A stretch of DNA of 64,000 bases from an uncultured Lachnospiraceae bacterium (lineage in GTDB: Bacteria; Bacillota; Clostridia; Lachnospirales; Lachnospiraceae). The notes under the pieces were generated by a model. The model was not told where the DNA came from. It searched no databases and saw only the letters and a list, made by a program, of their open reading frames with translations. Shown in pieces: positions 5,993 through 63,697 of this stretch (positions are counted from its first letter, which is position 1; each line of letters starts with the position of its first letter). The stretch is taken from positions 1 through 64,000 of the forward strand of contig CACXEU010000099.1 of NCBI GenBank assembly GCA_902766735.1. Reading direction: 5' to 3'. The position numbers and the translations under genes are program-made.

Positions 5993-6006
5993 TTAAAGGA
6001 GGAAAA

Positions 6007-8407: not shown

Positions 8408-8455
8408 ATGTTATAGTGTGGCAAACTGCCACGATTATGATAAGTGAGAATTAGA

Positions 8456-46426: not shown

Positions 46427-46476
46427 GGAGTTTAATGATGGAAAAACAATGGAGAGAAAAAGAAAGGATAGTTATT

Positions 46477-47847
46477 ATGGGTAAAAATTTAAAGAAATTA
46501 TTTGCAGCAGGATTAAGTATGGCATTGCTTTTTTCTTTCGCATTACCTGATAGAGCAGTGGAAGGAAAGGTAACTCCACCGGAACCGGCAAATCCGGTGA
46601 TTGAGGCGGTGGGTGATGATAATGTAGTTACCTGGGACTGTGTGTATTTTGGAAACTATTATCAAAGTAATGCACAGGATAAGGAGCCGATTCTGTGGAG
46701 AGTTTTATCTGTCACAGAAGATGATATGTTTCTTTTAGCTGATAAGGTGTTGGATTGTGGACCATATAACACTACATCGGATCCGACGACTTGGGAAACC
46801 TGTTCTTTAAGAGGTTGGTTAAATGATACCTTTTATAATACAGCTTTTACTTCCGATGAAAAGGATGCAATTAAGACGACCTTAGTTGTAAATGATGATT
46901 TCAGTGTCGGAGGCCCGTTGGTTGAAAACGGGAATGATACTTTAGATAAAGTATATTTATTATCTGCACAGGAATGTGGAAACAGTGCCTATGGATTCTG
47001 GAAGTCTTTTTTACTTGATTCACAGTGGGATTTAATGAAGATGGGAAAAATCACACAGTATGTTCTTGATAAAGGCGGATATAGCTTTGGAGAGGATGCT
47101 GCTTATTTTACGCGTAACACGAACTGGTGGTTAAGAGGAGAAGGATTGACAGCAGATCAGACTTATAAGGCTACCGGAATTCATCCGGCAGGTGGTGGTG
47201 CTGATTTTGACAAGACGATACAAAACTTTGGAATTCGTCCGGTTCTTCACTTAGACCGCACGAAAACAGATGTATGGAGCTATGCAGGAACAGTTACATC
47301 CACACAGGAATTCCATGAATATGTTCCACCAGTGGAAGGTTTCGAATTTAATGGATATGTTTTAAATAGTAAAGTTGGTGGTATGCGAGGTGTTTATACT
47401 GTAACAGATACACTGAACGGACTGGATGTAGTAGAAAGTGGATTGATTTACGGTGTGGCAGATTATGCAGAGGAAAGTGACATGTATGTGGGAAGTTCTT
47501 CTGAATATGTAGCAAGTTTTGCAGCCAATGCAGATGCAAAGTGTGCTCACAATTATTCTCAGACTCTTACTGATGGAACCAGTTATCGAATGACATTAAA
47601 GTTTGCAAAGGAAAGTGTGAAAGAGTTAACTTCCAACTGGTACATTAGAGCTTATGTAAAACTGGAAGATGACAGTTACGTGTATAGTGATGTAAGAACC
47701 TATAATATTTATGATGTAATCACTTATTTATATCAGAACAAGTTGATGCCATCCGAGGCAGAACATAATGAACTATATACCCGTTACTTAACAAAGGTTG
47801 ATCCGAATTATGAAGTTGTTCCATATGGCAACACATCTAATAACTAA
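46477..47847 (+). CDS. Secreted DUF6273-like protein with shared C-terminal domain
   Basis: 456 residues from the ATG at 46477 (AGGATAGTTATT upstream); signal peptide 1-26. Residues about 40-270 resemble DUF6273 (VYFGNYYQS, PILWRVLSV, LLADKVLDCGPYN, SLRGWLNDTFYNTAF, WWLRG, GIRPVLHLD), found in many secreted Lachnospiraceae proteins of unknown role. Residues about 287-450 are the first of five copies of the C-terminal domain shared with the next four proteins (GLIYGVADYAEESDMYVGSS, RAYVKLEDDSYVYSD, LYQNKLM, NPNY-like DPNYEVV). No glycosidase domain is visible. It could be a scaffold or sugar-binding partner of the enzymes next to it. Confidence 0.75.
   Translation: MGKNLKKLFAAGLSMALLFSFALPDRAVEGKVTPPEPANPVIEAVGDDNVVTWDCVYFGNYYQSNAQDKEPILWRVLSVTEDDMFLLADKVLDCGPYNTTSDPTTWETCSLRGWLNDTFYNTAFTSDEKDAIKTTLVVNDDFSVGGPLVENGNDTLDKVYLLSAQECGNSAYGFWKSFLLDSQWDLMKMGKITQYVLDKGGYSFGEDAAYFTRNTNWWLRGEGLTADQTYKATGIHPAGGGADFDKTIQNFGIRPVLHLDRTKTDVWSYAGTVTSTQEFHEYVPPVEGFEFNGYVLNSKVGGMRGVYTVTDTLNGLDVVESGLIYGVADYAEESDMYVGSSSEYVASFAANADAKCAHNYSQTLTDGTSYRMTLKFAKESVKELTSNWYIRAYVKLEDDSYVYSDVRTYNIYDVITYLYQNKLMPSEAEHNELYTRYLTKVDPNYEVVPYGNTSNN
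47335..47830 (+). other. Shared C-terminal domain, copy 1 (most diverged)
   Basis: About 160 residues related to the ends of the proteins encoded at 48241, 52262, 57354 and 59558. Common skeleton: GL(I/V)YGLADY, VGS, SYAMTMK, RAYxKLKDGSYVYS, TVYxLAxxLYQ and NYLYTxIL...NPNY. Confidence 0.7.
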
Positions 47848-47857
47848 TTGAACAATG

Positions 47858-47897
47858 AAAAGCCCTGCAAGTTGTAGTTACTTGCAGGGCTTTTGTA
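47858..47897 (+). terminator. Intrinsic terminator of the DUF6273 gene
   Basis: AAAAGCCCTGCAAG (47858-47871) pairs perfectly with CTTGCAGGGCTTTT (47881-47894): a 14-bp stem. Confidence 0.95.
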
Positions 47898-48240
47898 ATT
47901 TCAAGTGGATTTTTCCATAAAATAGGAAAAGTCTGCTTTTTTATTGCCTGAAAATTGAATTTCAAACCAAGAATAGACAAATTTTGAAACGGTTCCAATG
48001 ATATTTTTGAAATGATAAAAATTATTTTAGCGCTAACATCTCGAAAAAGCACTAAAAAAATGTTTCAAAACTGTGCGAATTGCACAATGGAAGCCTTTCC
48101 AATTCCCTCATTACGCCAAAAATGATAAGAAACAATAAAAATGCTTTTTTACTATGGAAAAACAAAAAAGCGATACCTATAATAAAAAACGAAAACTTGA
48201 ATCGGAGAAAAGAGGAAAAAAGCAAAGGAGAGAAACATTT
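47898..48240 (+). promoter_or_regulatory. Regulatory region upstream of the glycosidase operon
   Basis: No gene. It holds a cluster of palindromes: TTGAAACGGTTCCAA (47984-47998, imperfect), TTAGCGCTAA (48027-48036, perfect, LacI-family-like centre), TGTGC-GAATT-GCACA (around 48073-48088) and TGGAA-GCCT-TTCCA (around 48090-48103). The promoter could not be fixed with confidence. The last part encodes the 5' leader of the first GH gene, with AAAGGAG at 48225-48231. Confidence 0.55.
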
Positions 48241-51200
48241 ATGAAATTGAGTAAAAGAGTACTATCGTTTCTGTTAACGCTAACAATGGTAATGGGACTG
48301 CTGCCAATGTCTCTGCCGGCGAATGAAACGACAGTCAGTGCAGGAACTTCCTGGAGAAGTGCACTGTACCCGGAAAATTGGACTCCGGGATATTCCATTA
48401 ATAATGGAACACAATATTTGCAGGATTTTTCCTATGCAGGTTATGAGAAGGGAGAGAAAGCACTTCCTACTACAATGAGTGGAATTACTGCTAATGTTCT
48501 TGACTATGGAGCAGACAGCACAGGAGGGAATGATTCCACCACGGCAATTCAGAATGCAATCAATGCGGTACAGAATGCCGGTGGCGGTACCGTTTACTTA
48601 CCGGCAGGAACTTATAAGGTGAAGCCCAGTGGAACCGGTGCAGCAGCATTAAAAATCAGTGCAGCGAATGTCTTATTGAAAGGGGACGGAATTGGAAAGA
48701 CTTTTATAAGATGTTATGCAGAAAATATGATGAACAGTCAGGTTATTCTCGTACAGGGAGATGCATCATGGGACACTGTAAATGGAGCATCCAGCAATTT
48801 ATCAAAAGATATCACAAAACCTACCACAACCATTCCGGTAAACAGTACCAGTGGTTTTGCAGTAGGAGATTATGTTGTGGTTCGAAGCAACAGAACCCAG
48901 GGATTCATTGATGAACATCAGATGAACGGATTCTGGTCCGCTTCTTTAAATCCAACAACAATGGGACCAACCTTCTATCGTAAGGTTACCGCAGTCAATG
49001 CATCCAATAACACAATCGAAATTGATATCCCTACAAGATATGCCTTAAAGACCAGAGATAGTGCAAGAATTTATAAAGTTAAAGCACCAACGAAGAAAAA
49101 CATTGGTTTAATGGATTTCTCTATTGGTAATAAGATGAATCCGAAAACAAACGGATGGGGAGAAGAAGATTACAAGACTGCAGGAACAGGTGCCTACGAG
49201 GCTAATCAGGCGTTCCTGATTAAATTTTCTAACTGTGAGAACTGCTTTGCAAAGAATATCGCAACCTATCAGGCAGGCAATGCATCACAGATTCATATGA
49301 TTTCTAATGGATTGGACTTAAATAGAACAAAGAATGTAACTATTGAAAACTGTGATTTCAGTTATCCACAGTATGAAGGCGGCGGCGGAAACGGATATGG
49401 AATTAATCTTTGCGGACAGGAAACATTAATTAAGAACTGTTCTTCCACCAGCGCAAGACATAGTTTCGCATTTAAGTATTCTTACGCTAATGGAAATGTT
49501 ATTTATCATTACACTTCCACAGATCCAAAATATGGAAGCGACTTCCATATGTACTTAAGTATGTCAAACCTGATTGACAATGAAGAATTAAATGGGGACT
49601 TTGTGGAAACCCACGTCCGTCCTTATGGTGGTACGGCTGGGAACAGACATGGAGTGACATCTTCCCAGACTGTTTTCTGGAATACCAAAGGGAACAGATA
49701 TAAATCAGGAACGAACTATATTATTGATTCCAGACAGCATGGATACGGATACATTATTGGAACCCAGGGGGCGGCAACCAGCGTCAAGACTACACCGACC
49801 AGTGAAAGTTCTTCTTATGGAAATCCGAATACAGCACCGGAAGATTATAAAGAAGGAATTGGTCAGGCTGCAGATCTTGTTCCGCAGTCATTATACTATG
49901 ATCAGTTAGAAAAGAGATTGGCCCGTGAGGGGGGACAGACTGTGTCCGTAATTCCGGGAACGGTTTCTGTAGGAGCGTTTACTTCTAAAACAGATTCCAT
50001 CACAATGAACAAAATCGGAAATACAATTTATGCAGGAAATTTAAATAGTAACAAAGAATTGAACTACGCGGTAACGGCTAAAGATTCAGGAAACTATCAA
50101 TTTACATTTAAGTTTGCAGCCGGAGATATGCAGTGGAATGCAAAGAATATGATTATCAAATTGGATGATCAGACTGTTGCAACCATTCCTGTTCAGGGAA
50201 GCAGTAGTTGGGAAACTTTTATAGACCATACAGCAACCTTTAGCGTGACCGCAGGACAGCATAAGCTTTCTATCGTTGCAGACGGAGGCTCATGTAATGT
50301 GGCAGATTTTTCAGCAAAAACGGTAAATGAATCTAATGAACAACCGACAGAACCACAGGTTCCGGATGCAACATTGCCAGAAGAACAACTTTCGTCCAAT
50401 AGCGGAAGAGTTGTTGGATATTTACCTTCTTACAGATTGGGAAGCTTAAACAGTATTGATTTTTCAGCACTGACACATTGTGTATTATCATTCATGACAT
50501 ATAACAACGGAACATTGACTTCAGGATTTAGTGCATCCAATACGCAGAATGTAGTGAACAAATGCCATCAGAATGGTGTAAAGGCAATGATAGCCATCGG
50601 TGGTGGCGGTGGATTTAATACATCGGACAATCCATTTGGAACAGCCGCTAAGAGAACTTCCATTGTAAATCAGATTATGAACTATGTTGATACATACGGT
50701 TTAGATGGTGTTGACATCGATATTGAAGTATCCGACTCCAACACATGGGCAAACTTTGATCCGTTTATTAGCGAATTGTCCAGTAGATTAAAAGCTGAAA
50801 ATAAATTATTAACCATGGCGGTTTCATCCTGGTTTACTGGTTCAATTCAGAACAGTACTTATAACTACTTCGATTTTATCAATCTGATGACTTACGACGA
50901 GAATGCAGGAAATGGACCGGTAGCATCTATGAATTTTGTAAATGGTCAGATTTCTCATTATGTAGGAAAAGGCATTAGTAAGGATCGTTTAACAATTGGA
51001 GTACCATTCTATGGTTATGGTCCCGGTGGATATTCTGATGCATTTACCTATGGTGAAATTATTAGTGCCAATGCAAGCAACAGAAATTCTGATACCGCAA
51101 CCATCAATGGGAAGACAGTCTATTATAATGGCGAACCAAGTATTAGGGAGAAGGCTGAGTTAAGTAAGTCGTACGGCGGAATCATGATTTGGGAATTAGG

Positions 51201-52233
51201 ACAGGATTCTTTTGGAACCTATTCCCTGTTAAAGGTCATTAAGGATATTGTTAAAAGCACAAGCACAGTAACAAATCCGATAATTACAGCAATTCCGGGG
51301 ACAGTTCCGGTAGATTCCTTTGTATCAAAGAGTAGTGAAATTACAATCACTTCAGGTACACCGACTTATGCAGGAAACTTAAAGAATGGTTCAGAACTGA
51401 GTTATTACATTCGCGTCCCAGAGGCAGGAAAATATACCGTAACCCTAAAGCTTGGAGCAGGAAATCCACAGTACAATGCAAAGAATATGCTTGTGAAATT
51501 AAACAATGAAACTGTGGCAACTGTTCCGGTGCAGGCAAGCACTGATTGGACGACATTTATTGACCATACTGCAGAAATCAACTTTGCTGCAAAGGGTGAA
51601 TATAAGATTTCTTTGGTGTCAGATTCCGGAGCATGTAATGTGACAGATTTCATGATTGTAAAGAAAGCACAGGAAACCACAACGGAAGCACCAACGGAAG
51701 AATCAACCACCCAACCGGTTCAGATGAAAGCATCAGTAGCAATTAACGGATGTCAGATTAATGCCTCTGCAGAAGGATTCCGTGTCGTTTACAGTGTAAA
51801 CGATCCTGACAATGAAGTAGCCCATGCAGGTTTGATATATGGCTTAGCAGATTATGCAACAGACAATGACTTATATGTAGGAAGCACTGCAAAGAGTGTT
51901 TATGATTATGAAGCAAATGACAGTGCAAAATTAAAGAAGTCTTACGGAATAGGTCAGAGTTATGCAATGACTATGACAAATATTAAAAATGCAAACTTCT
52001 ATCATGCACAGATTTCAGTCAGAGCATATATTCGGTTAAAGAATGGCACTTATGTATATGGTAACATAAAGAAATTTACGGTTTATGATTTAGCACATTA
52101 CTTATATCAGCATAAGGAAATGACCAATGAAGTAAGTCACAACTATTTATATACGAAGATTTTGTCCATAGCAGATTCAAACTATCAGAAAGTGGAATTT
52201 GATTGGAACAAAACATTAGTAACGATGGATTAA
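48241..52233 (+). CDS. Secreted beta-helix + GH18 multidomain glycosidase
   Basis: 1330 residues from the ATG at 48241; a longer frame from 48154 adds only a basic extension before the signal peptide. Signal peptide 1 to about 33. About 70-560 is a right-handed beta-helix of the Pectate_lyase_3/GH55 kind (VLDYGADSTGGNDSTTAIQ, GGGTVYLPAGTYKV). A CBM6-like module (about 571-697) is followed by a GH18 catalytic domain (about 720-1000) with DGVDIDIE (822-829, acid E829). A second CBM6-like module (about 1018-1142) and the shared C-terminal domain (about 1164-1325) complete it. GH18 points to chitin or GlcNAc-containing glycans; the substrate of the beta-helix is unknown. First of three closely spaced genes. 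Confidence 0.85.
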   Translation: MKLSKRVLSFLLTLTMVMGLLPMSLPANETTVSAGTSWRSALYPENWTPGYSINNGTQYLQDFSYAGYEKGEKALPTTMSGITANVLDYGADSTGGNDSTTAIQNAINAVQNAGGGTVYLPAGTYKVKPSGTGAAALKISAANVLLKGDGIGKTFIRCYAENMMNSQVILVQGDASWDTVNGASSNLSKDITKPTTTIPVNSTSGFAVGDYVVVRSNRTQGFIDEHQMNGFWSASLNPTTMGPTFYRKVTAVNASNNTIEIDIPTRYALKTRDSARIYKVKAPTKKNIGLMDFSIGNKMNPKTNGWGEEDYKTAGTGAYEANQAFLIKFSNCENCFAKNIATYQAGNASQIHMISNGLDLNRTKNVTIENCDFSYPQYEGGGGNGYGINLCGQETLIKNCSSTSARHSFAFKYSYANGNVIYHYTSTDPKYGSDFHMYLSMSNLIDNEELNGDFVETHVRPYGGTAGNRHGVTSSQTVFWNTKGNRYKSGTNYIIDSRQHGYGYIIGTQGAATSVKTTPTSESSSYGNPNTAPEDYKEGIGQAADLVPQSLYYDQLEKRLAREGGQTVSVIPGTVSVGAFTSKTDSITMNKIGNTIYAGNLNSNKELNYAVTAKDSGNYQFTFKFAAGDMQWNAKNMIIKLDDQTVATIPVQGSSSWETFIDHTATFSVTAGQHKLSIVADGGSCNVADFSAKTVNESNEQPTEPQVPDATLPEEQLSSNSGRVVGYLPSYRLGSLNSIDFSALTHCVLSFMTYNNGTLTSGFSASNTQNVVNKCHQNGVKAMIAIGGGGGFNTSDNPFGTAAKRTSIVNQIMNYVDTYGLDGVDIDIEVSDSNTWANFDPFISELSSRLKAENKLLTMAVSSWFTGSIQNSTYNYFDFINLMTYDENAGNGPVASMNFVNGQISHYVGKGISKDRLTIGVPFYGYGPGGYSDAFTYGEIISANASNRNSDTATINGKTVYYNGEPSIREKAELSKSYGGIMIWELGQDSFGTYSLLKVIKDIVKSTSTVTNPIITAIPGTVPVDSFVSKSSEITITSGTPTYAGNLKNGSELSYYIRVPEAGKYTVTLKLGAGNPQYNAKNMLVKLNNETVATVPVQASTDWTTFIDHTAEINFAAKGEYKISLVSDSGACNVTDFMIVKKAQETTTEAPTEESTTQPVQMKASVAINGCQINASAEGFRVVYSVNDPDNEVAHAGLIYGLADYATDNDLYVGSTAKSVYDYEANDSAKLKKSYGIGQSYAMTMTNIKNANFYHAQISVRAYIRLKNGTYVYGNIKKFTVYDLAHYLYQHKEMTNEVSHNYLYTKILSIADSNYQKVEFDWNKTLVTMD
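49951..50330 (+). other. CBM6-like module coding segment (48241 protein, first)
   Basis: Opens IPGTVSVGAF, then YAGNL, DSGNYQFTFKFAAGDMQWNA, TIPVQGSSSWETF and GGSCNVADF. The IPGT opening and the W/G pattern resemble CBM6/CBM35 beta-sandwiches. Confidence 0.65.
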
Positions 52234-52261
52234 TCAGAAAAGGATTAGGGAGAGAACAGAT

Positions 52262-55200
52262 ATGAGACAACTAAGAAAATTAGTTTGTTTTCTTATGATA
52301 ACAGTGATGATTTTTACGGGAACAGAAATGTTCCCGTTCCATCAGTCTGTATCCGGTGCGGCACAGAATGCACCGGCAAGAGTGTATTTTGAAAAGGACG
52401 GAAATAAGAAAACGATTCGCTGGGAGAGTGTGAATGGAGCAACAGGATATAACGTATATCGAAGTAATAGCCGATATGGAACTTACACAAAAATCGGTTC
52501 TTCATCCACTACAACCTATGTAGATGAAACGGCCGGTTCTTACTATTACAAAGTCAGAACACAGTTAAGTGGAGGAGAATCCGGAGATTCTGATCCAACA
52601 TCTGAAGAAATTCAGTTGTTCGGCGAGAACGTTTATGTTTTTGATAAAACAGATGACATGTCTCAGGTACAATCCATCTTAACAAGTACATGGAATAAGC
52701 AGGAAACCAATCAGTTTGGAAGTGACCGATATGCATTTTATTTCAAACCGGGAAATTATTCGTCTCTGGATTTCTATGTGGGATTCTATACGCAGGTATC
52801 CGGTCTGGGACTAAAACCGACAGATACCCATGTGGGAAAAATGAATTGTACTGCCAGATGGTTAGGTGGTGACAGCAATCACAATGCTACTTGTAACTTC
52901 TGGAGAATGGCAGAGAATCTTACCGTGGACAGCGACATGATGTGGGCGACTTCTCAGGCGGTATCTCTTCGAAGAATGCAGATTAATGGAAAATTAGATT
53001 TACATGATAATGGTGGATGGGCCAGTGGTGGATTTTTGGCAGACTCGAAAGTGACCAGTTCCACAAACTCCGGCTCCCAGCAGCAGTGGATTTCCAGAAA
53101 CACGGAATGGGCTAGCTGGAGCGGATCCAATTGGAACATGAACTTTGTAGGATGTACCAATACACCAAACGAAGACGGACAAGCGCATTACACACCGATT
53201 GCTCAGACACCGGATTCTTATGAAAAACCATTTCTGGTATATCACAATGGTGAATATGGAATTTTCGTTCCGGAAAGAAGAACCAATTCCAAGGGAGTAT
53301 CCTGGGAAGGAAATAACAACGGAACCTTTATTTCGATTGATAAATGCTTTGTGGCAAAACCAACGGATTCCGTTGATAAGATTAATAATGAATTAGCACA
53401 AGGAAAACATTTAATCTTTACACCGGGGATTTATAACATTAATAAACCGATTGAAGTTAAGAATGAAAATACTGTTGTTTTAGGAATTGGACTGGCATCC
53501 TTAAAGTCTACGAATGGAAATGTTTGTATTAAGACAGCAGATGCTGATGGCATTAAAATTGCCGGACTGTTGTTTGATGCCGGAACAACTAATACGAGAA
53601 CTATGCTTCAGGTAGGAGAATCCGGATCTGCAAGATCCCATACAACCAATCCGATTTTTATCGGTGATGTATTCTTCCGGGTCGGTGGTGTAGAGAATGT
53701 TGCAACAAACGCAGACACCTGCGTTATTATTAATGCTAACGACGTTATCGGTGACAATTTCTGGGTGTGGCGTGCAGACCACACTTATGGTGTGGGTTGG
53801 AATACCAATAAGACTACTAATGGAATTATTGTCAATGGTGATAATGTAACAATCTACGGATTAATGGTGGAACATTTTCATCAGTATCAGACGGTATGGA
53901 ATGGAAATGGTGGACGGACATATATGTATCAGAGTGAAATGCCATATGACGTTCCAAACCAGAGTTCCTGGTCACATAATGGAGTGAATGGATATGCATC
54001 TTACAAGGTATCAGACAATGTTATTTCGCATCAGGCATATGGTCTGGGAATGTATTTATATAACAGAGATGCTGCAGTAACACAGAATACTGTAATGGAA
54101 GTACCGGATGTGGCTGGAGTGACAGTTCATAATATTTGTTCGGTCATGCTAACGGGAAATCCGAGAACGGACCATGTAATTAATAACACTGGTGGCGGAG
54201 TTTATAACGGAGGAGCAAGACAGTACATTGTCAATTACGGTTCCGGTGTGGCAGCACCAACTATTGAACCGACAAATGAATGTTATAGAGAAGCACCAAC
54301 CGTGGTATTAAAAACAAATACAGCCGGTGCAACCATTCGATACACAACAGATGGGACAATCCCATCTAAGACTAATGGTAAAACCTACACTGGACCATTT
54401 AAGTTAAATGTTTCTGCAACAATTAAGGCAATGGCGTATCTGGACGGTCAGACGGACAGTGCGGTAAATACAAAGACGATTACTATTGGAGACATTGCAT
54501 TAAATAAGCCGGTTACCGTATCTTCTACCAGAAGTACCGGCGTGAAAATGCAGAATGCTGATTACACAGCTGATAAGCTGACCGATGGAAATAAATCAAA
54601 GGATGCCTGTCGTTGGGAATCCGAATGGAGTGACAGCCAGTGGGCAGTCGTTGATTTAGAAAAGAATTACAACCTGAATGAAATTAAACTGACCTGGGAA
54701 GCAGCATCTGCCGCAGACTATACCGTTCAGGTTTCTAAAGATAATTCCAATTGGGAAACCGTTCGAACAGTAACCAATGGTGCACAGGGTGCGGTGTTAG
54801 ATGTGACCAATGTGAATCGGACCGCCCGCTACATTAAAGTCGATATGACAAAGCGTGCCACAACCTATGGAAATTCTCTATATGAAATTGAAGCATATGG
54901 AGAGCCGGCAGATGGAGTGGTTGAAATTTCACCGGTTCCGGGAAAAGCTATGGAGGGAGAGGAAATCTCTGGAAGCAGTGCAATGGTAACAACCATTCCG
55001 GGAACCGTTCTGATTACAGATTATTCGGACGCATCTTCCGGAATTACCGTAGATGCTTATGCAGGAAACTTTAAGAATGGTTCTTCCATTTCTTATAAGG
55101 TTAATGCCGTGGCAGGGAACTATGAAATGACATTGCCTCTGGCGGCAGGAAACACACAGTATAATGCGGCAAATATTCTTGTTTCTGTGGATGGAACACA

Positions 55201-57331
55201 GGTGGCAAGTATTCCGGTTACTGGAAGTACTGCATGGGATGCCTTCATAAATCATAAGGCACAGTTCCATATCACAGGTGGCAAGCATACGATTTCTTTA
55301 GCTACCAATGGTGGCGGTGGCGCTTGCAACATAAATAGCTTTACTATGTCTTTGGTTCAGCCGGAAGAAACCACTGCAGAACCAACTACGGAAGAATCAA
55401 CTACAGTGGAAGAAACCACAATCGAACAGGGACAAAACCAAAGTAAAGTATTTCATCCGGTGACGGTACCGGATGGATCAACGAATACCTCTGGGCAATA
55501 TTTGTCTGTGGGCTATTTACCAAACTGGTCCGCATCGGGGTTCTATCAGAAGATTAACTGGGATGGATTGACACATATCTGCCTGGCATTTTGTAATCCG
55601 GATACCAACGGAAACTTAAGTTACAGTAGTGACAGTCTGACAAAAAATATTGTTACAGCAGCACACAATCATGGAGTAAAGGTTATGGCTTCCTTAGGTG
55701 GTGCTGATTATGGTGATAACTATACTGCTTTAGTAACAGCATCCAGAATGGACAGCTTTAATGATCAGATTATTTCCTTCGCACAGAAATATAATTTAGA
55801 CGGAATCGATATTGATATTGAAGGAGACAGTCATACCTCACAGTCTGTTTGGAACAACTATGAAGCATGGATGAGAACACTCAGTGCGAAATGTAAATCA
55901 AACGACCTGTTATTCACCACAGCTATTGGACAGTGGTATGCAGGCAATGTAACCAATAAAGCATTGACTTATTTTGATTATGTCATGCTGATGGAATATG
56001 ATTGTAGCGCAAGCAATTATCCATCCAGAATTAATTATTTTATGAATACAAAGGGAGTTCCAAAGGAAAAGATTGTATTAGGAGTACCATTTTATGCAGA
56101 TGGACCTTATACAGCATACAGTGAAATTGTGGGACAAACCAGAGGAACGAACCTTTATAACCGTGTCACAGGAATTATTCCTTTGGCAAAGAGCTATGCA
56201 GGAATCATGAACTGGGAATTAACCCAGGATACGACCAATAATACATCTTTGATGAAGGCTATTCAGAACGGCCTTTATGATGGTGGTGTGGCACCAAGAG
56301 ACGGGGACGGACAAACAGCAGTAACGGATGTTCCGGGAACTGTAAAGGTAAAAGACTATTACGATAAGACATCATCCGTTACCTTTACTACAACGACCAG
56401 TGGTGTCACATATGCAGGAGGACTTAATAATAATTCTTACTTAGATTTCTATGTTAATGTTACGCAGGAAGGCTCTTACACAATTAATCTTCCATTGGCT
56501 GCCGGAAATGTCCAGTGGAATGCGGAGAGCATGGTAGTCAGTGTAAATGATACGGAAGTAGTAACACTTCCGATTATAGCCAGCACAGACTGGGAAGCAT
56601 TTATCAATCACAGCTGTAAATTCAATGCAGCAGAAGCGGGAGCATACAAAATATCCGTAAAAGCTGTTAGTGGTGCAGTGAATGTGGCAGACTTCTTAGT
56701 AGCACGAAACGGAGAAATTGAAACAGAAGAGCCAACTACCGAGGAACCAATGACAGAAGAAACGACGACAGAAGAACTGACTAGCGAGGAACCAACCACG
56801 GAAGAACCGACTGTTATTTCTAAGGCAAAAATGGAAATTAATGGATATCAGATTAGTACCACTTATGAAGGATTCCGTGTGATATTCTCTTCTGATGATC
56901 CAGACAATGAAATCGTAGGTACTGGACTGGTTTACGGATTGACCGATTATACATCAAATTCTGAAATGGTTGTAGGAAGCAGTAACAGCACCGTATATAA
57001 CTATGAAGTGGACCAGTACGGAATGCTACAGCGCAATGCCAGCACTTTTGCTAATGGAAAGAGTTATTCCATGACCATGAAGCATATCAAGAGTGCGAAG
57101 TTCTATAACACATCCATTAGTGTCAGAGCTTATGCGAAGTTAAAGGACGGCTCTTATGTATACAGTGATGTGAAGACATTAACGGTATATCGATTAGCGA
57201 ATTATCTATATCAGAATCAGATGATGACCAATGTCAATGCACATAACTATTTATATACAATGATTTTAAAAGTAGTAAATCCTAATTATGAAACAGTGGA
57301 TTTTGATTGGAGTAATACTTTGGTGAAATAG
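52262..57331 (+). CDS. Secreted beta-helix + CBM32 + GH18 multidomain glycosidase
   Basis: 1689 residues, signal peptide 1 to about 35. Fibronectin III-like domain (about 38-115); large beta-helix (about 120-660: YAFYFKPGNYSSLDFYVGFYTQVSGLGL-type opening, NATCNFWRMAENLTV, WASGGFLADSK, QQQWISRN) of a family often mislabelled adenylyl cyclase and probably a GH55/GH87-like glucanase; a CHB_HEX_C-type segment (about 680-738, IRYTTDGTIPS); an F5/8C (CBM32) domain (about 746-881); CBM6-like module (about 911-1031); Thr/Glu linker; GH18 (about 1080-1336) with DGIDIDIE (1180-1187); CBM6-like module (about 1356-1482); linker; shared C-terminal domain (about 1520-1685). It starts 28 nt after the previous gene, in the same operon. 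Confidence 0.85.
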   Translation: MRQLRKLVCFLMITVMIFTGTEMFPFHQSVSGAAQNAPARVYFEKDGNKKTIRWESVNGATGYNVYRSNSRYGTYTKIGSSSTTTYVDETAGSYYYKVRTQLSGGESGDSDPTSEEIQLFGENVYVFDKTDDMSQVQSILTSTWNKQETNQFGSDRYAFYFKPGNYSSLDFYVGFYTQVSGLGLKPTDTHVGKMNCTARWLGGDSNHNATCNFWRMAENLTVDSDMMWATSQAVSLRRMQINGKLDLHDNGGWASGGFLADSKVTSSTNSGSQQQWISRNTEWASWSGSNWNMNFVGCTNTPNEDGQAHYTPIAQTPDSYEKPFLVYHNGEYGIFVPERRTNSKGVSWEGNNNGTFISIDKCFVAKPTDSVDKINNELAQGKHLIFTPGIYNINKPIEVKNENTVVLGIGLASLKSTNGNVCIKTADADGIKIAGLLFDAGTTNTRTMLQVGESGSARSHTTNPIFIGDVFFRVGGVENVATNADTCVIINANDVIGDNFWVWRADHTYGVGWNTNKTTNGIIVNGDNVTIYGLMVEHFHQYQTVWNGNGGRTYMYQSEMPYDVPNQSSWSHNGVNGYASYKVSDNVISHQAYGLGMYLYNRDAAVTQNTVMEVPDVAGVTVHNICSVMLTGNPRTDHVINNTGGGVYNGGARQYIVNYGSGVAAPTIEPTNECYREAPTVVLKTNTAGATIRYTTDGTIPSKTNGKTYTGPFKLNVSATIKAMAYLDGQTDSAVNTKTITIGDIALNKPVTVSSTRSTGVKMQNADYTADKLTDGNKSKDACRWESEWSDSQWAVVDLEKNYNLNEIKLTWEAASAADYTVQVSKDNSNWETVRTVTNGAQGAVLDVTNVNRTARYIKVDMTKRATTYGNSLYEIEAYGEPADGVVEISPVPGKAMEGEEISGSSAMVTTIPGTVLITDYSDASSGITVDAYAGNFKNGSSISYKVNAVAGNYEMTLPLAAGNTQYNAANILVSVDGTQVASIPVTGSTAWDAFINHKAQFHITGGKHTISLATNGGGGACNINSFTMSLVQPEETTAEPTTEESTTVEETTIEQGQNQSKVFHPVTVPDGSTNTSGQYLSVGYLPNWSASGFYQKINWDGLTHICLAFCNPDTNGNLSYSSDSLTKNIVTAAHNHGVKVMASLGGADYGDNYTALVTASRMDSFNDQIISFAQKYNLDGIDIDIEGDSHTSQSVWNNYEAWMRTLSAKCKSNDLLFTTAIGQWYAGNVTNKALTYFDYVMLMEYDCSASNYPSRINYFMNTKGVPKEKIVLGVPFYADGPYTAYSEIVGQTRGTNLYNRVTGIIPLAKSYAGIMNWELTQDTTNNTSLMKAIQNGLYDGGVAPRDGDGQTAVTDVPGTVKVKDYYDKTSSVTFTTTTSGVTYAGGLNNNSYLDFYVNVTQEGSYTINLPLAAGNVQWNAESMVVSVNDTEVVTLPIIASTDWEAFINHSCKFNAAEAGAYKISVKAVSGAVNVADFLVARNGEIETEEPTTEEPMTEETTTEELTSEEPTTEEPTVISKAKMEINGYQISTTYEGFRVIFSSDDPDNEIVGTGLVYGLTDYTSNSEMVVGSSNSTVYNYEVDQYGMLQRNASTFANGKSYSMTMKHIKSAKFYNTSISVRAYAKLKDGSYVYSDVKTLTVYRLANYLYQNQMMTNVNAHNYLYTMILKVVNPNYETVDFDWSNTLVK
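54993..55355 (+). other. CBM6-like module coding segment (52262 protein, first)
   Basis: Opens IPGTVLITDY, with YAGNFKNGSSISYKV, LAAGNTQYNAANILVSVDG, SIPVTGSTAWDAF and GGACNINSF; clearly paralogous to the modules at 49951, 51292, 56328 and 62346. Confidence 0.65.
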
Positions 57332-57353
57332 GAAACCTATAGAAGGAGATATT

Positions 57354-59336
57354 ATGAAAAAATTTATTACAGCAGGGATGGTTTTGACATTACTCATATT
57401 ATCCTTTCATATGGTGTGGGAAAAACAGGAAAAAACAGTGGAGGCTGCAGAAGCATATGCGGGAAATCCGATTATCGCAAATATGTTTACAGCAGACCCG
57501 TCGGCCCATGTATGGGAAGCTAATGGAAAATTGTACATTTATGCTTCCCATGACATTTTTCCTTCCAGAGGATGTGACTTAATGGATAAGTATCATGTTT
57601 TCTCCACGACGAATATGGTGACCTGGAAAGATGAAGGGGAAATTTTATCTTCAGATGACGTATCTTGGGGACGTCCGGAAGGAGGCTTCATGTGGGCTCC
57701 GGATGCAGCCTATAGGAATGGAACATACTACTTGTATTTTCCACATCCAACAGGTTCCGGGGATGATTGGAACAGTACCTGGAGAATCGGCGTGGCAAAA
57801 AGCACGAAGCCTGCCAGTGATTTTACCTGTGCATCCGACGGATACGTAAAGAAAAAAGATGGTAGCCCTTATGTAACGGGAATCGATCCATGTATGTTCA
57901 AAGATGATGACGGACAGTATTATTTATACACCGGAGGCGGTGCCCACAGCTATGTGGCAAAAATGCAGGACAACATGGAATATCTGGCAGAGGAACCGGT
58001 AGAAATTACCGGAAGCTTAACAGACTTTCATGAAGCAATGTGGGTGTTTAAACGAAATGGCATTTACTATGCCATGTATGCCGACAACACATGGGGAGAA
58101 AACCTGATGAGATATTCTACTGCCAGCAGTCCATATGGACCATGGAAAGAAGGCGGTATTGTATTGGATGGGACAGGATGTGATACGACCCATGGTTCCA
58201 TTTGTGAGTATAAGGGGCATTGGTATTTGTTCTATCATAACTGTGAAATATCCGGAAACGGGACCCTTCGCTCTGTATGTGCGGATGAAGTGACGTTTCG
58301 GGAAGATGGTTCCATTAAGAAGGTGGAACAAACGAAACGGGGTGTTGAAAATGTGGATGTTGTAAATCCGGAAGATTTAGCAGGAAATAACAGCAAACCA
58401 AATCCGGAGGATTTTGTAGAAACGACAAATTATAAAGCCTCGGAAGCTACGCTGTTCGGCGCTGCGCAGCTAGAAGGGGATGGTGCCGTACATAATCTTC
58501 ATATGGAAGGTGCAGCATTACAGTGGAATCACATCAATGGCGGAATTGGTGGGCAGGCAATGCTTACTGTTTATTATGCCACACCGGATGGCGCCACAGG
58601 ATTGGTACACAGCAGTGGAGATGCTTCAGGGGACGGATATTTCCTGAAGTTTGATAAAACATCCGGCTGGAGTGATTACGGAAAGGGCGTGGCGCGATGC
58701 TTCGTTGATTTAAAGGCAGGAAGTGACAATACGGTTAAGGTGATTTGTGGAATGGGTGGTGTGAATATCACGGGAATGTCCATTTCTTTAAAAAATCAGA
58801 GTCAGCCGGTAAGTCGTGCAGAAGTAGCCCTGAACGGTTGTCAGATTAGTGATGTTTTGGAAGGATTTCGAATTGTCTTTTCAGTGTCGGATCCGGCCAA
58901 TGAAATTCAGGAAGCAGGAATGATTTACGGATTGATGGATTATGCAGCAAAGGATGACTTGATTCTGGGAAGCAAACAAAAATCAGTTTATGCTTATACC
59001 GTGAATCTGGCGAATCCATTGTCACGATGTTATGAGACAACGTTTGAGCATGGAAAAAGTTATGCGCTGACAATGAAACTACTCAAGAACAGAGATTTTT
59101 ATACATCAGAGATTGGTGTGAGAGCTTATGTAAAATTAAAGGATGGCTCTGTGATCTACAGCAATCCGGGTGTGTTTACCATATATCATTTAGCGGATGT
59201 TCTGCATCAGAAGCAGAATATGTCTAATCTGCAGGGACATAATTATTTGTATCAGCAGATTTTAACAAAAGTGAATCCGAATTATCAGTACTGTGATTAC
59301 CATTGGAATCATGGAATTGCAATTTTGGATGAGTAA
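57354..59336 (+). CDS. Secreted GH43-family glycosidase with CBM6-like module and shared C-terminal domain
   Basis: 660 residues, signal peptide 1-32 (AAGGAGATATT before the ATG). GH43 five-bladed propeller (about 34-340): NMFTADPSAHVWEANGKLYIYASHD (catalytic base Asp in ADPS), WAPDAAYRNGTYYLYFP, GIDPCMFKDDDGQYYLYTGGG and FHEAMWVFKRNGIYYAMY (acid Glu in HEA). Most GH43 enzymes act on arabinan or xylan, some on galactan, so this is the one member not obviously aimed at chitin or beta-glucan. A CBM6-like module (about 360-485) and the shared C-terminal domain (about 490-655) follow. It begins 22 nt after the previous gene. Confidence 0.88.
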   Translation: MKKFITAGMVLTLLILSFHMVWEKQEKTVEAAEAYAGNPIIANMFTADPSAHVWEANGKLYIYASHDIFPSRGCDLMDKYHVFSTTNMVTWKDEGEILSSDDVSWGRPEGGFMWAPDAAYRNGTYYLYFPHPTGSGDDWNSTWRIGVAKSTKPASDFTCASDGYVKKKDGSPYVTGIDPCMFKDDDGQYYLYTGGGAHSYVAKMQDNMEYLAEEPVEITGSLTDFHEAMWVFKRNGIYYAMYADNTWGENLMRYSTASSPYGPWKEGGIVLDGTGCDTTHGSICEYKGHWYLFYHNCEISGNGTLRSVCADEVTFREDGSIKKVEQTKRGVENVDVVNPEDLAGNNSKPNPEDFVETTNYKASEATLFGAAQLEGDGAVHNLHMEGAALQWNHINGGIGGQAMLTVYYATPDGATGLVHSSGDASGDGYFLKFDKTSGWSDYGKGVARCFVDLKAGSDNTVKVICGMGGVNITGMSISLKNQSQPVSRAEVALNGCQISDVLEGFRIVFSVSDPANEIQEAGMIYGLMDYAAKDDLILGSKQKSVYAYTVNLANPLSRCYETTFEHGKSYALTMKLLKNRDFYTSEIGVRAYVKLKDGSVIYSNPGVFTIYHLADVLHQKQNMSNLQGHNYLYQQILTKVNPNYQYCDYHWNHGIAILDE

Positions 59337-59557
59337 AAAAGATGTTATTACTATGCACATATTTTTTGTGCATATAATATAAAGCCATACTACATATCAG
59401 GTGTGATTGTATATGGTGAGGTACCATAATTTGGTATAAAATGAAAGTACCTATGGGGCTTTGAGTTTGAAGGAAAACATAAGAACTATAAATCTCGCTA
59501 AAATGACAAACCGGTAAGATTTATAAGTCTTAAAACAACGCAAGGATGGAGGAAAAA
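59337..59557 (+). promoter_or_regulatory. Leader and control region of the GH5-GH18 gene
   Basis: No gene. A stem ATGCAC/GTGCAT (59353-59371) may end the upstream transcript weakly. TATAAT at 59374-59379 and TATAAA near 59435 are possible -10 boxes; the latter lies between the arms AGGTAC and GTACCT (about 59420-59453). A 9-bp inverted repeat TATAAATCT/AGATTTATA (about 59488-59526) lies in the leader just before GGAGG. Confidence 0.4.
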
Positions 59558-62500
59558 ATGCGGAAATTCAAAGGAATGGGTAAAAGAGCATTGGCATACA
59601 CCATGGCAATGTGCTTAACCGCCGGTTTATTTACCGGAATTGGAGTGGGAAATGATGTGAAAGCGGTAAAGGCTGCCACAACAGGCTTTACAAAGAATGA
59701 CTTTTTGAAAGTCGACGGGACCTATGTGAAAAACAATTATGGAAAGGGAAACAATGTTTATCTTCGAGGAACAAACTTAGGAAACCTTTTTGTACAGGAA
59801 AGCTGGATGAGTTCTACAGATGCTTCGGATCAGAAGACAATTCTTGAAGGACTGACCAATCGGTTTGGACAGGACAAGGCATTGGAATTGTTAGATTACT
59901 ATGAAAGTAATTACATAACAACAGCAGACTTTGACAAGATGAAAAGCATGGGAATGTCTGTAGTTCGAGTGCCGTTTACTTATATGAACCTGTACAAGAA
60001 GTCTGGAAACAGTTGGGTGCTTCGTTCCGATGCATTTACCCGATTGGACTGGATTGTGGAGCAGTGTAGTCAGAGAGGAATTTATGTTATCTTAGACCTT
60101 CATGGTGCTTTTGGTTCACAGAATGGTCAGGATCATTCCGGCCAGGTGCTTAACAGTGTATCTGATGTAACATTTTTCAGCAATGAAACATTGATGACAC
60201 AGACATTGGATTTGTGGAAAGTTGTTGCACAGCATTATGCTGGAAATCCGGCAGTAGCAGGTTACGATACCTTGAATGAGCCGGGAGAAAAAGCAGGTTC
60301 AACCGGCGAAAAGCATTGGAATTTCTATGACAGAATGTATGATACAATTCGTTCCGTTGACCCGGATCATATCATTATTATGGAATCATGCTGGGGTACA
60401 GCAAACCTTCCAAATCCATCCCGCTATGGTTGGACGAACGTAATGTACGAATATCACCATTATCCATGGGATTATGTGGCAGATAATGACGAAAATTATA
60501 ACGGACAGGTAAATGCCATTAATAACCTGGTTAACAGTGTAAACAGTGCAAATTACGGTGTTCCGACATACATCGGTGAATTTAACTGCTTTGATGGAGA
60601 TGCAAAATGGAAATATGTTCTTGATAAAATGAACAAAGCCGGTTGGCATTATACGAACTGGTCTTACAAGTCCAACGGTATGGGAAGTTGGGGAATTTAT
60701 CATGAATATGCAAGTCAGGGAAAGGTTAAACCTTCTTCTGATTCTGAAGATGCCATCCGAACAAAATGGGGTAGTGGTAATATTGGCACAAACAACAGCA
60801 GCACAGGAGTTACTTATAATAACATGAAACCAAAACTTCCGGGAACTGTTGTTTTTGCTGATACTGCCTTAACAGATGATAGTTATTTTGGAATTCAGGC
60901 AACCATTAATTCTAAATATGTTTGTTCTGAAGATTACGGGGAATCTAATCTGGTAGCAGACCGTGATTCTTCCGGTGGCTGGGAACAGTTCCGAATTATT
61001 CGAAACAGTGACGGAACTTATTCCTTCCAGGCCAGAGCAAACAATAAATACCTGTGTGCAATCATTGATGATACGGATACCAAAAATCCGGTGAAGGCAC
61101 GAAGCAACAAAATCAGTGATTGGGAAAAGTTTACGTTGGAGAAACAGTCTAACGGAACTTACGCAATTAAGGCAAATGCCAATGGAAAATATGTACAGGC
61201 TGACATTAACGATTCTAAGGCAGGAATCTTACATGCCTGTGGAGAATCAGTAGGAACCTGGGAAACATTCAATCTGAAGTCTGTAACCGGAAAGGCAACT
61301 ATTCCGGGAGAAACTCAGACAGAAGAACCAACACAGAATCAGACACAGCCGCAGACCCAGGAAGCGACAGTGGAAATCCCGAAGAATTCTTCTTCTACAA
61401 AATATGGAAATGACTTTAAGGTGGTAGCATATTATCCAAACTGGTATGGTGACATTACGAGTCAGGTACAGTGGGATAAAATAACCCATGCATATTATGC
61501 GTTTGGTCTTCCATCAGGTTCACTGAATGGTACCATGCAGAGCCTTAGCGGAGAAGCATCGAATATTAAGGCAATGGTAAATGCATGTAATCAGCATAAT
61601 GTTGTACCGGTACTGTCTGTAGGTGGATGGAGTCATTCAGATTCCTGGGATCCGGATAAGAAGTGTAGTGTAATCTTTGAAGCAAATACAGATACGGAAG
61701 CAAAACGTCAGTCTTTGGCAAATAGTATTGTAAATCAGGCAGTACAGCATGGATTCAAGGGAGTTGATATCGATTGGGAATATCCAACTTCTTCCAGCCA
61801 GGCACAGTATGTTGATTTTATGAAGAAATTAAGAGCACTCTGTAATCAGAATAATATGATTTTAACTGTTGCTGTAGCAGCAACCAGTGGTTCCGGATTT
61901 ACCAGTGAAGTATTAAACCTTTTGGACTTTGTAAATCTGATGGCATACGATGGAGACGGCGGAGCAGGTCATTCTCCATACAGTCTTGCGACACAGTCCT
62001 TTAATTATTGGAAAAATACTATGGGAGTACCGGCTAACAAACTTGTCATCGGTGTGCCTTTCTATGAAAGACCAAACTGGGCATCTTATGCAGATGTCGT
62101 TGCAAATAATGCAGCCAATGCACAGAAGGATTCCGCAGTAGTTAACGGAACAACAGTTTATTACAATGGGATTCCAACCATGAAACAGAAAGCGACTTAT
62201 GCAGCCAATAATGCCGGTGGTGTTATGATTTGGGAAATCAGTCAGGACTCCACAAACAGCTCCTTAAGCTTATTGAATGCAATTCATGAAGCAATTCTTC
62301 CAATTGTGGGAGAAGGTGGTTCCGGAGAAGTTGCCGTAACGAATGTTCCGGGAACAGTAAAGGTAAATGACTTTGGAAAAAAATCAAGTGAGATTACATT
62401 GACTACGGCAAACGGAGTAACTTATGCCGGTGGATTAAATAATGATTCCTATTTGGATTATTATATTAATGTGCAGGAAGCTGGAACATATGTATTGACT

Positions 62501-63697
62501 TTAAATCTGGCAGCAGGAAATACACAGTGGAATGCCAGTGGAATGAAAGTTTCCCTGAATGATCAGGCAGTAACAACAGTTCCGGTTCAAGGCAGTACAG
62601 GATGGGAAACCTTTATTCCGCACACCACTGAATTAACTTTCTCTGCAAAGGGAACTTATAAACTAACCATTACTGCACAGGGTGGTGCCTGCAATGTAGC
62701 AGACTTTACACTGACAAAGAAGAATGAACAACCATCCACAGCACAGCCTACAACACAGAAGCAGGAAACGACTACAGAGAAGGAAAATCCAACTTCTGCT
62801 ACAGGAAACTGGGTTCAGATTAATGACGACGGTGGTCAGCCAACAGATTATTATTTTGATAATTCCACTGTGGCGACAATCGTGAATGTTCAGTCACCGG
62901 GATTCACGCCGGAACGAGGAATTTATGCGAATGTTCCTGCAGGAATCAGTGGAGCTACCGTAAACGGAGCAACACTGAATGCACAAAACATTCAGGGAGC
63001 CGGAATAATTATTCCACTTTCTGTTTTGAACCAAGGAGAAAATACTGTCGTAGTAAACTATGCCGGCGGAACTGCAACCATCAGAATTAAGAAGGAAAGT
63101 GCTGTGGTTGAAACAACTACAGAGGAAACGACAACCAAGGAAGTTACGACAAAAGAAGTGACCACGAAGGAAGAAACAACAGAAAAAGAATCTGTTCAGG
63201 TAGAATTAAACGGGTTCCAGATGAATGTTAAAAAGGAAGGATTCCGTGCAATTTACACAGTTACAAATTCTAGTGATGTTGTGAAGAAGGGACTTGTTTT
63301 TGGTCTTGCAGATTATGTGGGTGATGAACCATTAGTGGTAGGAAGTACTCTGAAATCTGTATTTACTTATGAAGCAAATGCATATGGAACAATGTCCAAG
63401 CATTTTGGAAACTTAGAAAATGCTACAAGCTATGCAATGACAATGCGCTTACTGAAGAACGTTAAATTCTATAATACGTCCATTAAGGTTAGAGCGTATG
63501 CGCAGTTAAAAGATGGTTCTTATGTGTACAGTAACACGAAAACGATGAGTGTATACACTATAAGTGACAGACTTTATCAGGCAAAACAGATGGGTTCTCT
63601 GGAAGAACACAATTATTTATATAATACGATTCTGAAACCATCAAATCCTGATTATGAAGAAGTTGATGCCACATGGGAAAGCCCATTGATTCCGTAG
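59558..63697 (+). CDS. Secreted GH5 + GH18 bifunctional glycosidase
   Basis: 1379 residues from the ATG at 59558 (GGAGG upstream), signal peptide to about 37. GH5 domain (about 40-400), acid/base E241 in TLNEP and nucleophile E341 in YIGEFN; closest in style to exo-beta-1,3-glucanase/cellulase types. A fascin-like beta-trefoil (about 430-580: FGIQATINSKYVCSE, SFQARANNKYLCA, AIKANANGKYVQA) is followed by a GH18 domain (about 618-917) with KGVDIDWEYP, so the catalytic DxDxE (D737, D739, E741) is intact although the usual leading Asp is Lys (K734). Then a CBM6-like module (about 928-1052), an unrecognised beta domain (about 1081-1179), a Thr/Glu/Lys linker and the shared C-terminal domain (about 1213-1379). 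Confidence 0.88.
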   Translation: MRKFKGMGKRALAYTMAMCLTAGLFTGIGVGNDVKAVKAATTGFTKNDFLKVDGTYVKNNYGKGNNVYLRGTNLGNLFVQESWMSSTDASDQKTILEGLTNRFGQDKALELLDYYESNYITTADFDKMKSMGMSVVRVPFTYMNLYKKSGNSWVLRSDAFTRLDWIVEQCSQRGIYVILDLHGAFGSQNGQDHSGQVLNSVSDVTFFSNETLMTQTLDLWKVVAQHYAGNPAVAGYDTLNEPGEKAGSTGEKHWNFYDRMYDTIRSVDPDHIIIMESCWGTANLPNPSRYGWTNVMYEYHHYPWDYVADNDENYNGQVNAINNLVNSVNSANYGVPTYIGEFNCFDGDAKWKYVLDKMNKAGWHYTNWSYKSNGMGSWGIYHEYASQGKVKPSSDSEDAIRTKWGSGNIGTNNSSTGVTYNNMKPKLPGTVVFADTALTDDSYFGIQATINSKYVCSEDYGESNLVADRDSSGGWEQFRIIRNSDGTYSFQARANNKYLCAIIDDTDTKNPVKARSNKISDWEKFTLEKQSNGTYAIKANANGKYVQADINDSKAGILHACGESVGTWETFNLKSVTGKATIPGETQTEEPTQNQTQPQTQEATVEIPKNSSSTKYGNDFKVVAYYPNWYGDITSQVQWDKITHAYYAFGLPSGSLNGTMQSLSGEASNIKAMVNACNQHNVVPVLSVGGWSHSDSWDPDKKCSVIFEANTDTEAKRQSLANSIVNQAVQHGFKGVDIDWEYPTSSSQAQYVDFMKKLRALCNQNNMILTVAVAATSGSGFTSEVLNLLDFVNLMAYDGDGGAGHSPYSLATQSFNYWKNTMGVPANKLVIGVPFYERPNWASYADVVANNAANAQKDSAVVNGTTVYYNGIPTMKQKATYAANNAGGVMIWEISQDSTNSSLSLLNAIHEAILPIVGEGGSGEVAVTNVPGTVKVNDFGKKSSEITLTTANGVTYAGGLNNDSYLDYYINVQEAGTYVLTLNLAAGNTQWNASGMKVSLNDQAVTTVPVQGSTGWETFIPHTTELTFSAKGTYKLTITAQGGACNVADFTLTKKNEQPSTAQPTTQKQETTTEKENPTSATGNWVQINDDGGQPTDYYFDNSTVATIVNVQSPGFTPERGIYANVPAGISGATVNGATLNAQNIQGAGIIIPLSVLNQGENTVVVNYAGGTATIRIKKESAVVETTTEETTTKEVTTKEVTTKEETTEKESVQVELNGFQMNVKKEGFRAIYTVTNSSDVVKKGLVFGLADYVGDEPLVVGSTLKSVFTYEANAYGTMSKHFGNLENATSYAMTMRLLKNVKFYNTSIKVRAYAQLKDGSYVYSNTKTMSVYTISDRLYQAKQMGSLEEHNYLYNTILKPSNPDYEEVDATWESPLIP
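62346..62715 (+). other. CBM6-like module coding segment (59558 protein)
   Basis: VPGTVKVNDF opening, YAGGLNNDSYLDYYINV, LAAGNTQWNASGMKVSLND, TVPVQGSTGWETF and GGACNVADF. Nearly the same pattern as the second module of the 52262 protein (56328-56708), which suggests recent duplication. Confidence 0.65.
63197..63690 (+). other. Shared C-terminal domain, copy 5
   Basis: Begins VQVELNGFQMNVKKEGFRA, then KGLVFGLADY, VGSTLKSVFTYEANAYG, TSYAMTMRLLKN, VRAYAQLKDGSYVYSN, LYQAKQM, HNYLYNTIL and NPDYEEVDATW. Copies 2, 3 and 4 lie at about 51730-52215, 56821-57320 and 58815-59320. Confidence 0.8.

What the first reader, a model, noticed from the sequence alone, without database searches (positions are those of the whole stretch)
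46477..63697. Unrecognised ~160-residue C-terminal domain shared by five consecutive secreted proteins
Proteins with quite different catalytic parts (DUF6273, beta-helix/GH18, beta-helix/CBM32/GH18, GH43, GH5/GH18) all end in the same domain: an (N)G-(C/Y/F)Q(I/M) strand, GLxYGLADY, VGS, SY(A/S)MTMK, RAYxKLKDGSYVYS, LYQ and a final NPNYE-type tail. It always sits last, after a Thr/Glu linker in most. That is what a sorting, anchoring or scaffold-docking module looks like. There is no LPxTG, SLH or dockerin in these proteins, so the domain could define a new way of holding glycosidases on the cell or in a complex.
Basis: partly seen in the sequence, partly recalled or inferred. Interest (0 to 1): 0.82.

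Follow-up and report, generated by a model that had tools for sequence, protein, structure and literature searches.

The report
New address tag on secreted enzymes
A gut bacterium puts the same undescribed protein module on about 35 different secreted enzymes, most of which look made for digesting fungal cell walls, and the module most likely holds them on the cell surface, as CBM37 does in Ruminococcus albus.

Summary
Five consecutive secreted proteins end in one ~170-residue domain unknown to Pfam, NCBIfam and PDB sequences. It is genome-wide: 35 copies in this 2.4 Mb Lachnospiraceae genome, 38-41 in three congeners, 58 in one other genus (SIG293), no full-length copy in any other genus sampled. 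Carriers all look secreted. 'Always last' is wrong: 2 of 35 own copies and conserved families elsewhere carry it at the N-terminus, which excludes an obligatory C-terminal sorting signal. AlphaFold (pLDDT 94) predicts an FN3-like sandwich plus a conserved helical hairpin. Orthologous enzymes of the two genera keep their catalytic parts but carry differently related tags (ortholog's tag is the best match in 5 of 28; congener control 11 of 11). In a tag-free congener an orthologous GH81 enzyme ends instead in a very basic FN3 module (net +37). No SLH or cohesin in tag-rich genomes; sortases exist. Best reading: a lineage-specific attachment module, functional counterpart of R. albus CBM37 without detectable sequence relationship; its ligand is unproven. 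Most tagged enzymes attack chitin, beta-1,3-glucan, alpha-1,3-glucan or mannan, suggesting fungal-wall digestion.

The parts
46435..47847 (+). secreted DUF6273 protein carrying the tag (470 aa)
47317..47844 (+). tag domain copy 1
   Evidence: E 1.9e-77
48154..52233 (+). secreted beta-helix / CBM6 / GH18 / CBM6 protein carrying the tag (1359 aa)
51721..52230 (+). tag domain copy 2, after a Thr/Glu-rich linker
   Evidence: E 9e-95
52262..57331 (+). secreted beta-helix / Fn3_assoc / F5-F8C (CBM32-like) / CBM6 / GH18 protein carrying the tag (1689 aa)
56810..57328 (+). tag domain copy 3 (the copy folded by AlphaFold)
   Evidence: (E 2.5e-97)
57354..59336 (+). secreted GH43 protein carrying the tag (660 aa)
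58809..59333 (+). tag domain copy 4, no Thr/Glu linker
   Evidence: E 1.1e-91
59546..63697 (+). secreted GH5 / ricin-type / GH18 protein carrying the tag (1383 aa)
63191..63694 (+). tag domain copy 5, after a Thr/Glu-rich linker
   Evidence: E 5.6e-94

Best explanation
The domain is a lineage-specific attachment module ('address tag'): an FN3-like beta-sandwich capped by a conserved helical hairpin, fused, often through a flexible Thr/Glu linker, to the end of many of the organism's exported wall-digesting enzymes, and holding them at the producing cell's surface (a wall glycan or a surface receptor). Shown: the domain, its copy number, carriers that all look secreted, position, predicted fold, lineage restriction, tag replacement on orthologous enzymes, and exchange of the tag for a strongly basic FN3 module. 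Inferred: that it binds, and that the partner is on the cell and not on the substrate.
For: 35 copies in this genome; carriers with a visible start have a signal-peptide-like N-terminus except truncated or borderline ORFs, none with LPxTG. Carriers are functionally unrelated (GH18, 43, 5, 16, 81, 76, 115, alpha-1,3-glucanase, amylase, two protease families, CotH, LRR) and many already have their own CBMs (CBM5/12, 6, 26, ricin, F5/8C), so a shared extra module suggests a shared destination. N-terminal copies show a position-independent module. Tandem copies (L062, L135) fit avidity. Between genera the catalytic parts stay orthologous (up to 86% over 908 aa) while the ortholog's tag is the best match in only 5 of 28 pairs and is usually less similar than same-genome paralogs; within the genus 11 of 11 tags track the enzyme: tags become alike within a lineage, as expected if they fit a lineage-specific partner. 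A GH81 of a tag-free congener, 56.5% identical over 2292 aa up to the linker, ends instead in a 98-aa FN3 with net charge +37, a module likely to adhere to an anionic cell wall. Same pattern of use as CBM37, for which cell-surface attachment was shown (PMC4081043).
Against: No binding, localisation or partner data. Most carriers share one plausible target (fungal wall), so substrate binding is also sensible. The domain evolves faster than the enzymes (53-80% against 75-95% within the genus), so part of the lost orthology signal could be divergence alone, although 57-68% identical paralogs in one genome argue against that being all. The binding function of the basic FN3 module is itself an inference from charge.
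Confidence: 0.5

Rival explanations
1. Substrate-targeting carbohydrate-binding module: the tag binds a component common to the target (for instance fungal wall glucan, chitin or mannan) and brings all enzymes to it.
For: Most tagged enzymes are of fungal-wall type (chitinases with CBM5/12, GH16, GH81, GH128-like, GH64, alpha-1,3-glucanase, GH76). A beta-sandwich fold is usual for CBMs. Nearly invariant aromatic and polar residues (Q14, R23, R106, Y108, Y118, Y134, H145, Y149) could form a site.
Against: Also on proteins with other targets (CBM26 amylase, GH115, LRR, CotH, DUF6273). Many carriers have dedicated CBMs. Lineage-wise tag replacement on orthologous enzymes is not expected if the ligand is the same substrate. 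Congeners without the tag still have GH81 enzymes.
Confidence: 0.25
2. Scaffold docking: the tag binds a repeated receptor on a scaffold protein, as dockerin binds cohesin, building a multi-enzyme complex.
For: Tags on dozens of diverse enzymes; lineage-wise homogenisation is what partner co-evolution predicts; a single tag in most proteins.
Against: No cohesin in the five tag-rich genomes, no dockerin in this one; no candidate scaffold identified; tandem tags exist.
Confidence: 0.15
3. Passive spacer or stability domain: an FN3-like module spread by duplication with no binding partner.
For: FN3-like fold; such modules are common in secreted clostridial enzymes, and weak homologs without the hairpin occur in other genera.
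Against: Terminal in nearly all cases, single copy in most, about 20 columns at 85% or more conserved across 129 copies including the hairpin; internal spacer use is rare.
Confidence: 0.08
4. C-terminal secretion or sorting signal that is read and possibly cleaved by a dedicated machine.
For: Terminal in 33 of 35 own copies.
Against: N-terminal copies directly after the signal peptide in own and related genomes; tandem and internal copies; no LPxTG.
Confidence: 0.02

Closest known systems
CBM37 of Ruminococcus albus
   Same: Lineage-specific module in tens of copies per genome (51-102; PMC4081043), often terminal, sometimes tandem, on GHs of many families and on LRR and CotH proteins (PMC4300822); takes the place that other anchors hold in relatives; FN3-like core (Pfam fn3, E 7e-4).
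   Different: About 85 aa, basic (+6, pI 9.9) and without the helical hairpin, against ~170 aa and acidic (median -4, pI 5.2); no detectable sequence relationship (hhalign probability 0.6%); polysaccharide and cell-surface binding was shown for CBM37, not here.
Dockerin / cohesin cellulosome
   Same: Small terminal module on many secreted enzymes; within-lineage similarity of the tags.
   Different: FN3-like fold, not a calcium-binding EF-hand pair; no cohesin in the tag-rich genomes, no dockerin in this one.
Basic (Lys-rich) C-terminal FN3 module of the same bacteria
   Same: Sits at the same place, after a Thr-rich linker, on an orthologous GH81 and on a paralogous alpha-1,3-glucanase.
   Different: 96-103 aa, net +35 to +40, no hairpin, at most a weak Pfam fn3 match.
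Fibronectin type III fold in general
   Same: Predicted beta-sandwich, residues 6-127; PDB matches at Z 8-9.5 are mostly FN3 or other Ig-like domains.
   Different: No Pfam fn3 match; extra helices 126-135 and 142-156 are part of the conserved unit.

Membership tests
CBM37 | sequence similarity to CBM37 (R. albus WP_013483737.1 C-terminus) | tested here: not met
   hhalign probability 0.6%, 13 columns; one CBM37 sequence was used, not a profile
CBM37 | many copies, lineage-restricted, on diverse secreted enzymes | tested here: met
   35 to 58 copies per tag-rich genome; two genera only
CBM37 | binds polysaccharides and the cell surface | not testable with these tools
   needs protein or cells
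Dockerin type I | duplicated calcium-binding repeat (PF00404) | tested here: not met
   no dockerin in the genome; no Pfam match on the domain; FN3-like model
Cohesin-dockerin system | cohesin partner in the genome (PF00963) | tested here: not met
   0 of 5 tag-rich genomes
LPxTG sortase substrate | C-terminal LPxTG, hydrophobic segment, positive tail | tested here: not met
   no LPxTG in the last 60 residues of any carrier, although sortases are present
SLH-anchored proteins | SLH domain (PF00395) | tested here: not met
   0 of 8 genomes
Fibronectin type III / Ig-like fold | FN3/Ig-like beta-sandwich | tested here: met
   AlphaFold pLDDT 94.3; PDB Z up to 9.5 over 86-108 aligned residues, mostly FN3 or other Ig-like domains; predicted, not solved
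Pfam fn3 (PF00041) | profile match | tested here: not met
   no match up to E 1
Position-dependent C-terminal sorting signal | always at the C-terminus | tested here: not met
   N-terminal copies in own and related genomes

The most novel reading that the evidence does not exclude
An undescribed docking system, evolved independently of cellulosomes and CBM37, in which a lineage-specific FN3-plus-hairpin tag fits a lineage-specific surface receptor and thereby arrays a whole fungal-cell-wall-digesting enzyme set on gut bacteria that feed on fungi; imported enzymes are fitted with the resident tag.
Probability: 0.2. Interest if true: 0.85.

Novelty: new variant of a known kind. Interest (0 to 1): 0.62.

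Why it matters
It would add a second lineage-invented way, after CBM37, for gut Firmicutes to array dozens of hydrolases without a cellulosome, and it marks a little-known group of herbivore-gut Lachnospiraceae whose tagged enzyme set is aimed largely at fungal cell walls. The idea can be tested in a single binding experiment with a fused reporter.

Tried and rejected
Pfam, NCBIfam and PDB sequence searches with the domain gave only noise (DUF6155, HypF_C, TcaA; DNA polymerase I through a shared G-x-VYG stretch). CBM37 homology was tested and not found. No copy on plasmids or viral contigs. Weak hits in other genera (20-24 bits) cover only part of the FN3-like core, or are DNA polymerase I. 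No receptor was identified. No description of this domain was found in the paper library, which lacks most subscription journals.

Full report
OBSERVATION. Five consecutive complete ORFs (46435-63697, +) end in one domain, 35-40% identical to the first copy. The catalytic labels are right: DUF6273; beta-helix with CBM6 and GH18; beta-helix, F5/8C, CBM6 and GH18; GH43; GH5 with ricin-type and GH18. No Pfam or NCBIfam family covers the domain and no solved structure matches its sequence. The Thr/Glu linker is present before three of the five copies.

EXTENT. A profile of the five copies finds 35 in the 2.4 Mb genome. Of these, 33 end within 0-5 residues of the C-terminus, while two (G000:C18:12588 and C80:49900) begin 18-27 residues from the start, directly behind the signal peptide. 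In contigs of related genomes there are 56 copies: 46 C-terminal, 6 N-terminal (on GH64 beta-1,3-glucanases and on HExxH-containing peptidase-like proteins, orthologous across species), the first copy of one tandem pair, one internal, two cut by contig ends. Carriers with a visible start look secreted by a crude hydrophobicity rule (32 of 33, 42 of 44, 45 of 45; the exceptions are truncated or just below threshold), and none has LPxTG near its end.

DISTRIBUTION. 20 of 23 congeneric genomes (own included) have the domain; four of them carry 35-41 copies, the rest 1-13; none in 37 genomes of other genera. A class-wide sample gives only partial 20-24 bit hits: DNA polymerase I by chance, or the FN3-like core of other secreted proteins without the hairpin. 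No plasmid or viral copy. The related records are MAGs named Eubacterium or Lachnospiraceae; several isolate names (RUG, RUI) point to rumen collections and 'Lapin' to rabbit, which is my reading of the names and not a tool result.

STRUCTURE. AlphaFold on 56 sequences: mean pLDDT 94.3, pTM 0.87; a beta-sandwich over residues 6-127 followed by helices 126-135 and 142-156. The best PDB matches are mostly FN3 or other Ig-like domains, Z 8-9.5 over about 86-108 residues. Across 129 copies, G12, Q14, R23, G39, R106, Y108, Y118 and Y134 are 96-100% conserved, and H145, L148, Y149, I152, L153 and Y160 are 90% or more. So the hairpin is part of the unit. I had no coordinates and cannot say which of these residues are exposed.

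WHAT CARRIES IT. In this genome: GH18 (five proteins, some with CBM5/12), GH16, GH81, GH128-like, alpha-1,3-glucanase, GH76, GH5, GH43, GH115, an amylase with CBM26, subtilase, M64 peptidase, two CotH proteins, an LRR protein. SIG293 has nearly the same set. Chitin, beta-1,3-glucan, alpha-1,3-glucan and mannan are fungal-wall polymers (general knowledge), so the set looks like fungal-wall digestion; clostridial lysis of rumen fungal walls has been reported (cited in PMC7200989). GH81 occurs in all 24 genomes tested, tagged or not, and in none of 14 controls, so beta-1,3-glucan use is broader than the tag expansion; alpha-1,3-glucanase occurs only in the five tag-rich genomes.

TAGS BEHAVE LIKE ADDRESS LABELS. 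For 28 reciprocal-best enzyme pairs between this genome and SIG293, the ortholog's tag is the best SIG293 tag in only 5. The window's 52262 protein is 86% identical over 908 aa in its enzyme part but 48% in the tag; the GH5 protein L072 69% against 30%. Identity falls at the tag boundary, for example 70% to about 30% in the GH43 protein. Paralogous tags in one genome reach 57-68%. The control within the genus gives 11 of 11. Tags were therefore replaced or made alike within each lineage, or enzyme parts moved between lineages and were joined to resident tags. Fast divergence contributes but does not explain the close paralogs.

MODULE EXCHANGE. A tag-free congener with a single-contig genome (G019) has a GH81 that matches this genome's tagged GH81 at 56.5% over 2292 aa right up to the linker, then ends in a 98-residue Lys-rich FN3 module of net charge +37 instead of the tag. 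Alpha-1,3-glucanase paralogs within this genome show the same exchange (L198 against L079). In the window itself, a GH16 enzyme at 5989-7332 ends in such a basic module, and a 1508-residue surface protein at 11843-16369 ends in an SPKTG sortase-type signal with a sortase at 8444-9448. So at least three terminal routes coexist. The tag itself is acidic (median pI 5.2) and must bind differently from the basic module.

ALTERNATIVES EXCLUDED OR WEAKENED. No dockerin in this genome, no SLH in eight genomes, no cohesin in the tag-rich genomes. Sortases are present but tagged proteins lack the motif.

INTERPRETATION. The pattern equals that of CBM37 in R. albus: lineage-specific, dozens of copies, diverse enzymes plus LRR and CotH proteins, occasional tandem copies (PMC4081043, PMC4300822). 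CBM37 was shown there to attach enzymes to the cell surface. The two modules share only the FN3-like character. I take surface attachment as most likely (0.5), substrate binding next (0.25), docking to an unknown scaffold third (0.15). Membership in CBM37 or in cellulosome systems is not met.

Noticed in passing
window 5989-7332: GH16 glucanase without the tag that ends in a Lys-rich FN3-like module, the same kind of module that replaces the tag on a congener's GH81.
   Followed up: partly
window 11843-16369 and 8444-9448: 1508-aa surface protein with PA14 and Listeria-Bacteroides repeats ending in an SPKTG sortase-type signal, and a sortase gene nearby.
   Followed up: partly
G000 to G022 and G342: GH81 beta-1,3-glucanase, absent from 14 control genomes, is in all 23 congeners and SIG293 (1-8 copies); alpha-1,3-glucanase only in the five tag-rich genomes. 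The group looks specialised on fungal walls.
   Followed up: partly
L180, L183-L185, L195-L199 C-termini: A strongly basic (net +35 to +40 in ~98 aa) FN3-like C-terminal module on secreted enzymes, with at most a weak Pfam fn3 match; possible electrostatic wall anchor.
   Followed up: partly
L136 (G342:C22:108000-121500): Cluster of three genes with divergent copies of the domain in SIG293, followed by 15 to 75 further residues instead of ending the protein.
   Followed up: no
L093:493-3720: N-terminally tagged protein with an HExxH-type motif (FFSHEITHS) and F5/8C domains, peptidase-like but without a Pfam peptidase match; orthologs in several species keep the N-terminal tag.
   Followed up: partly
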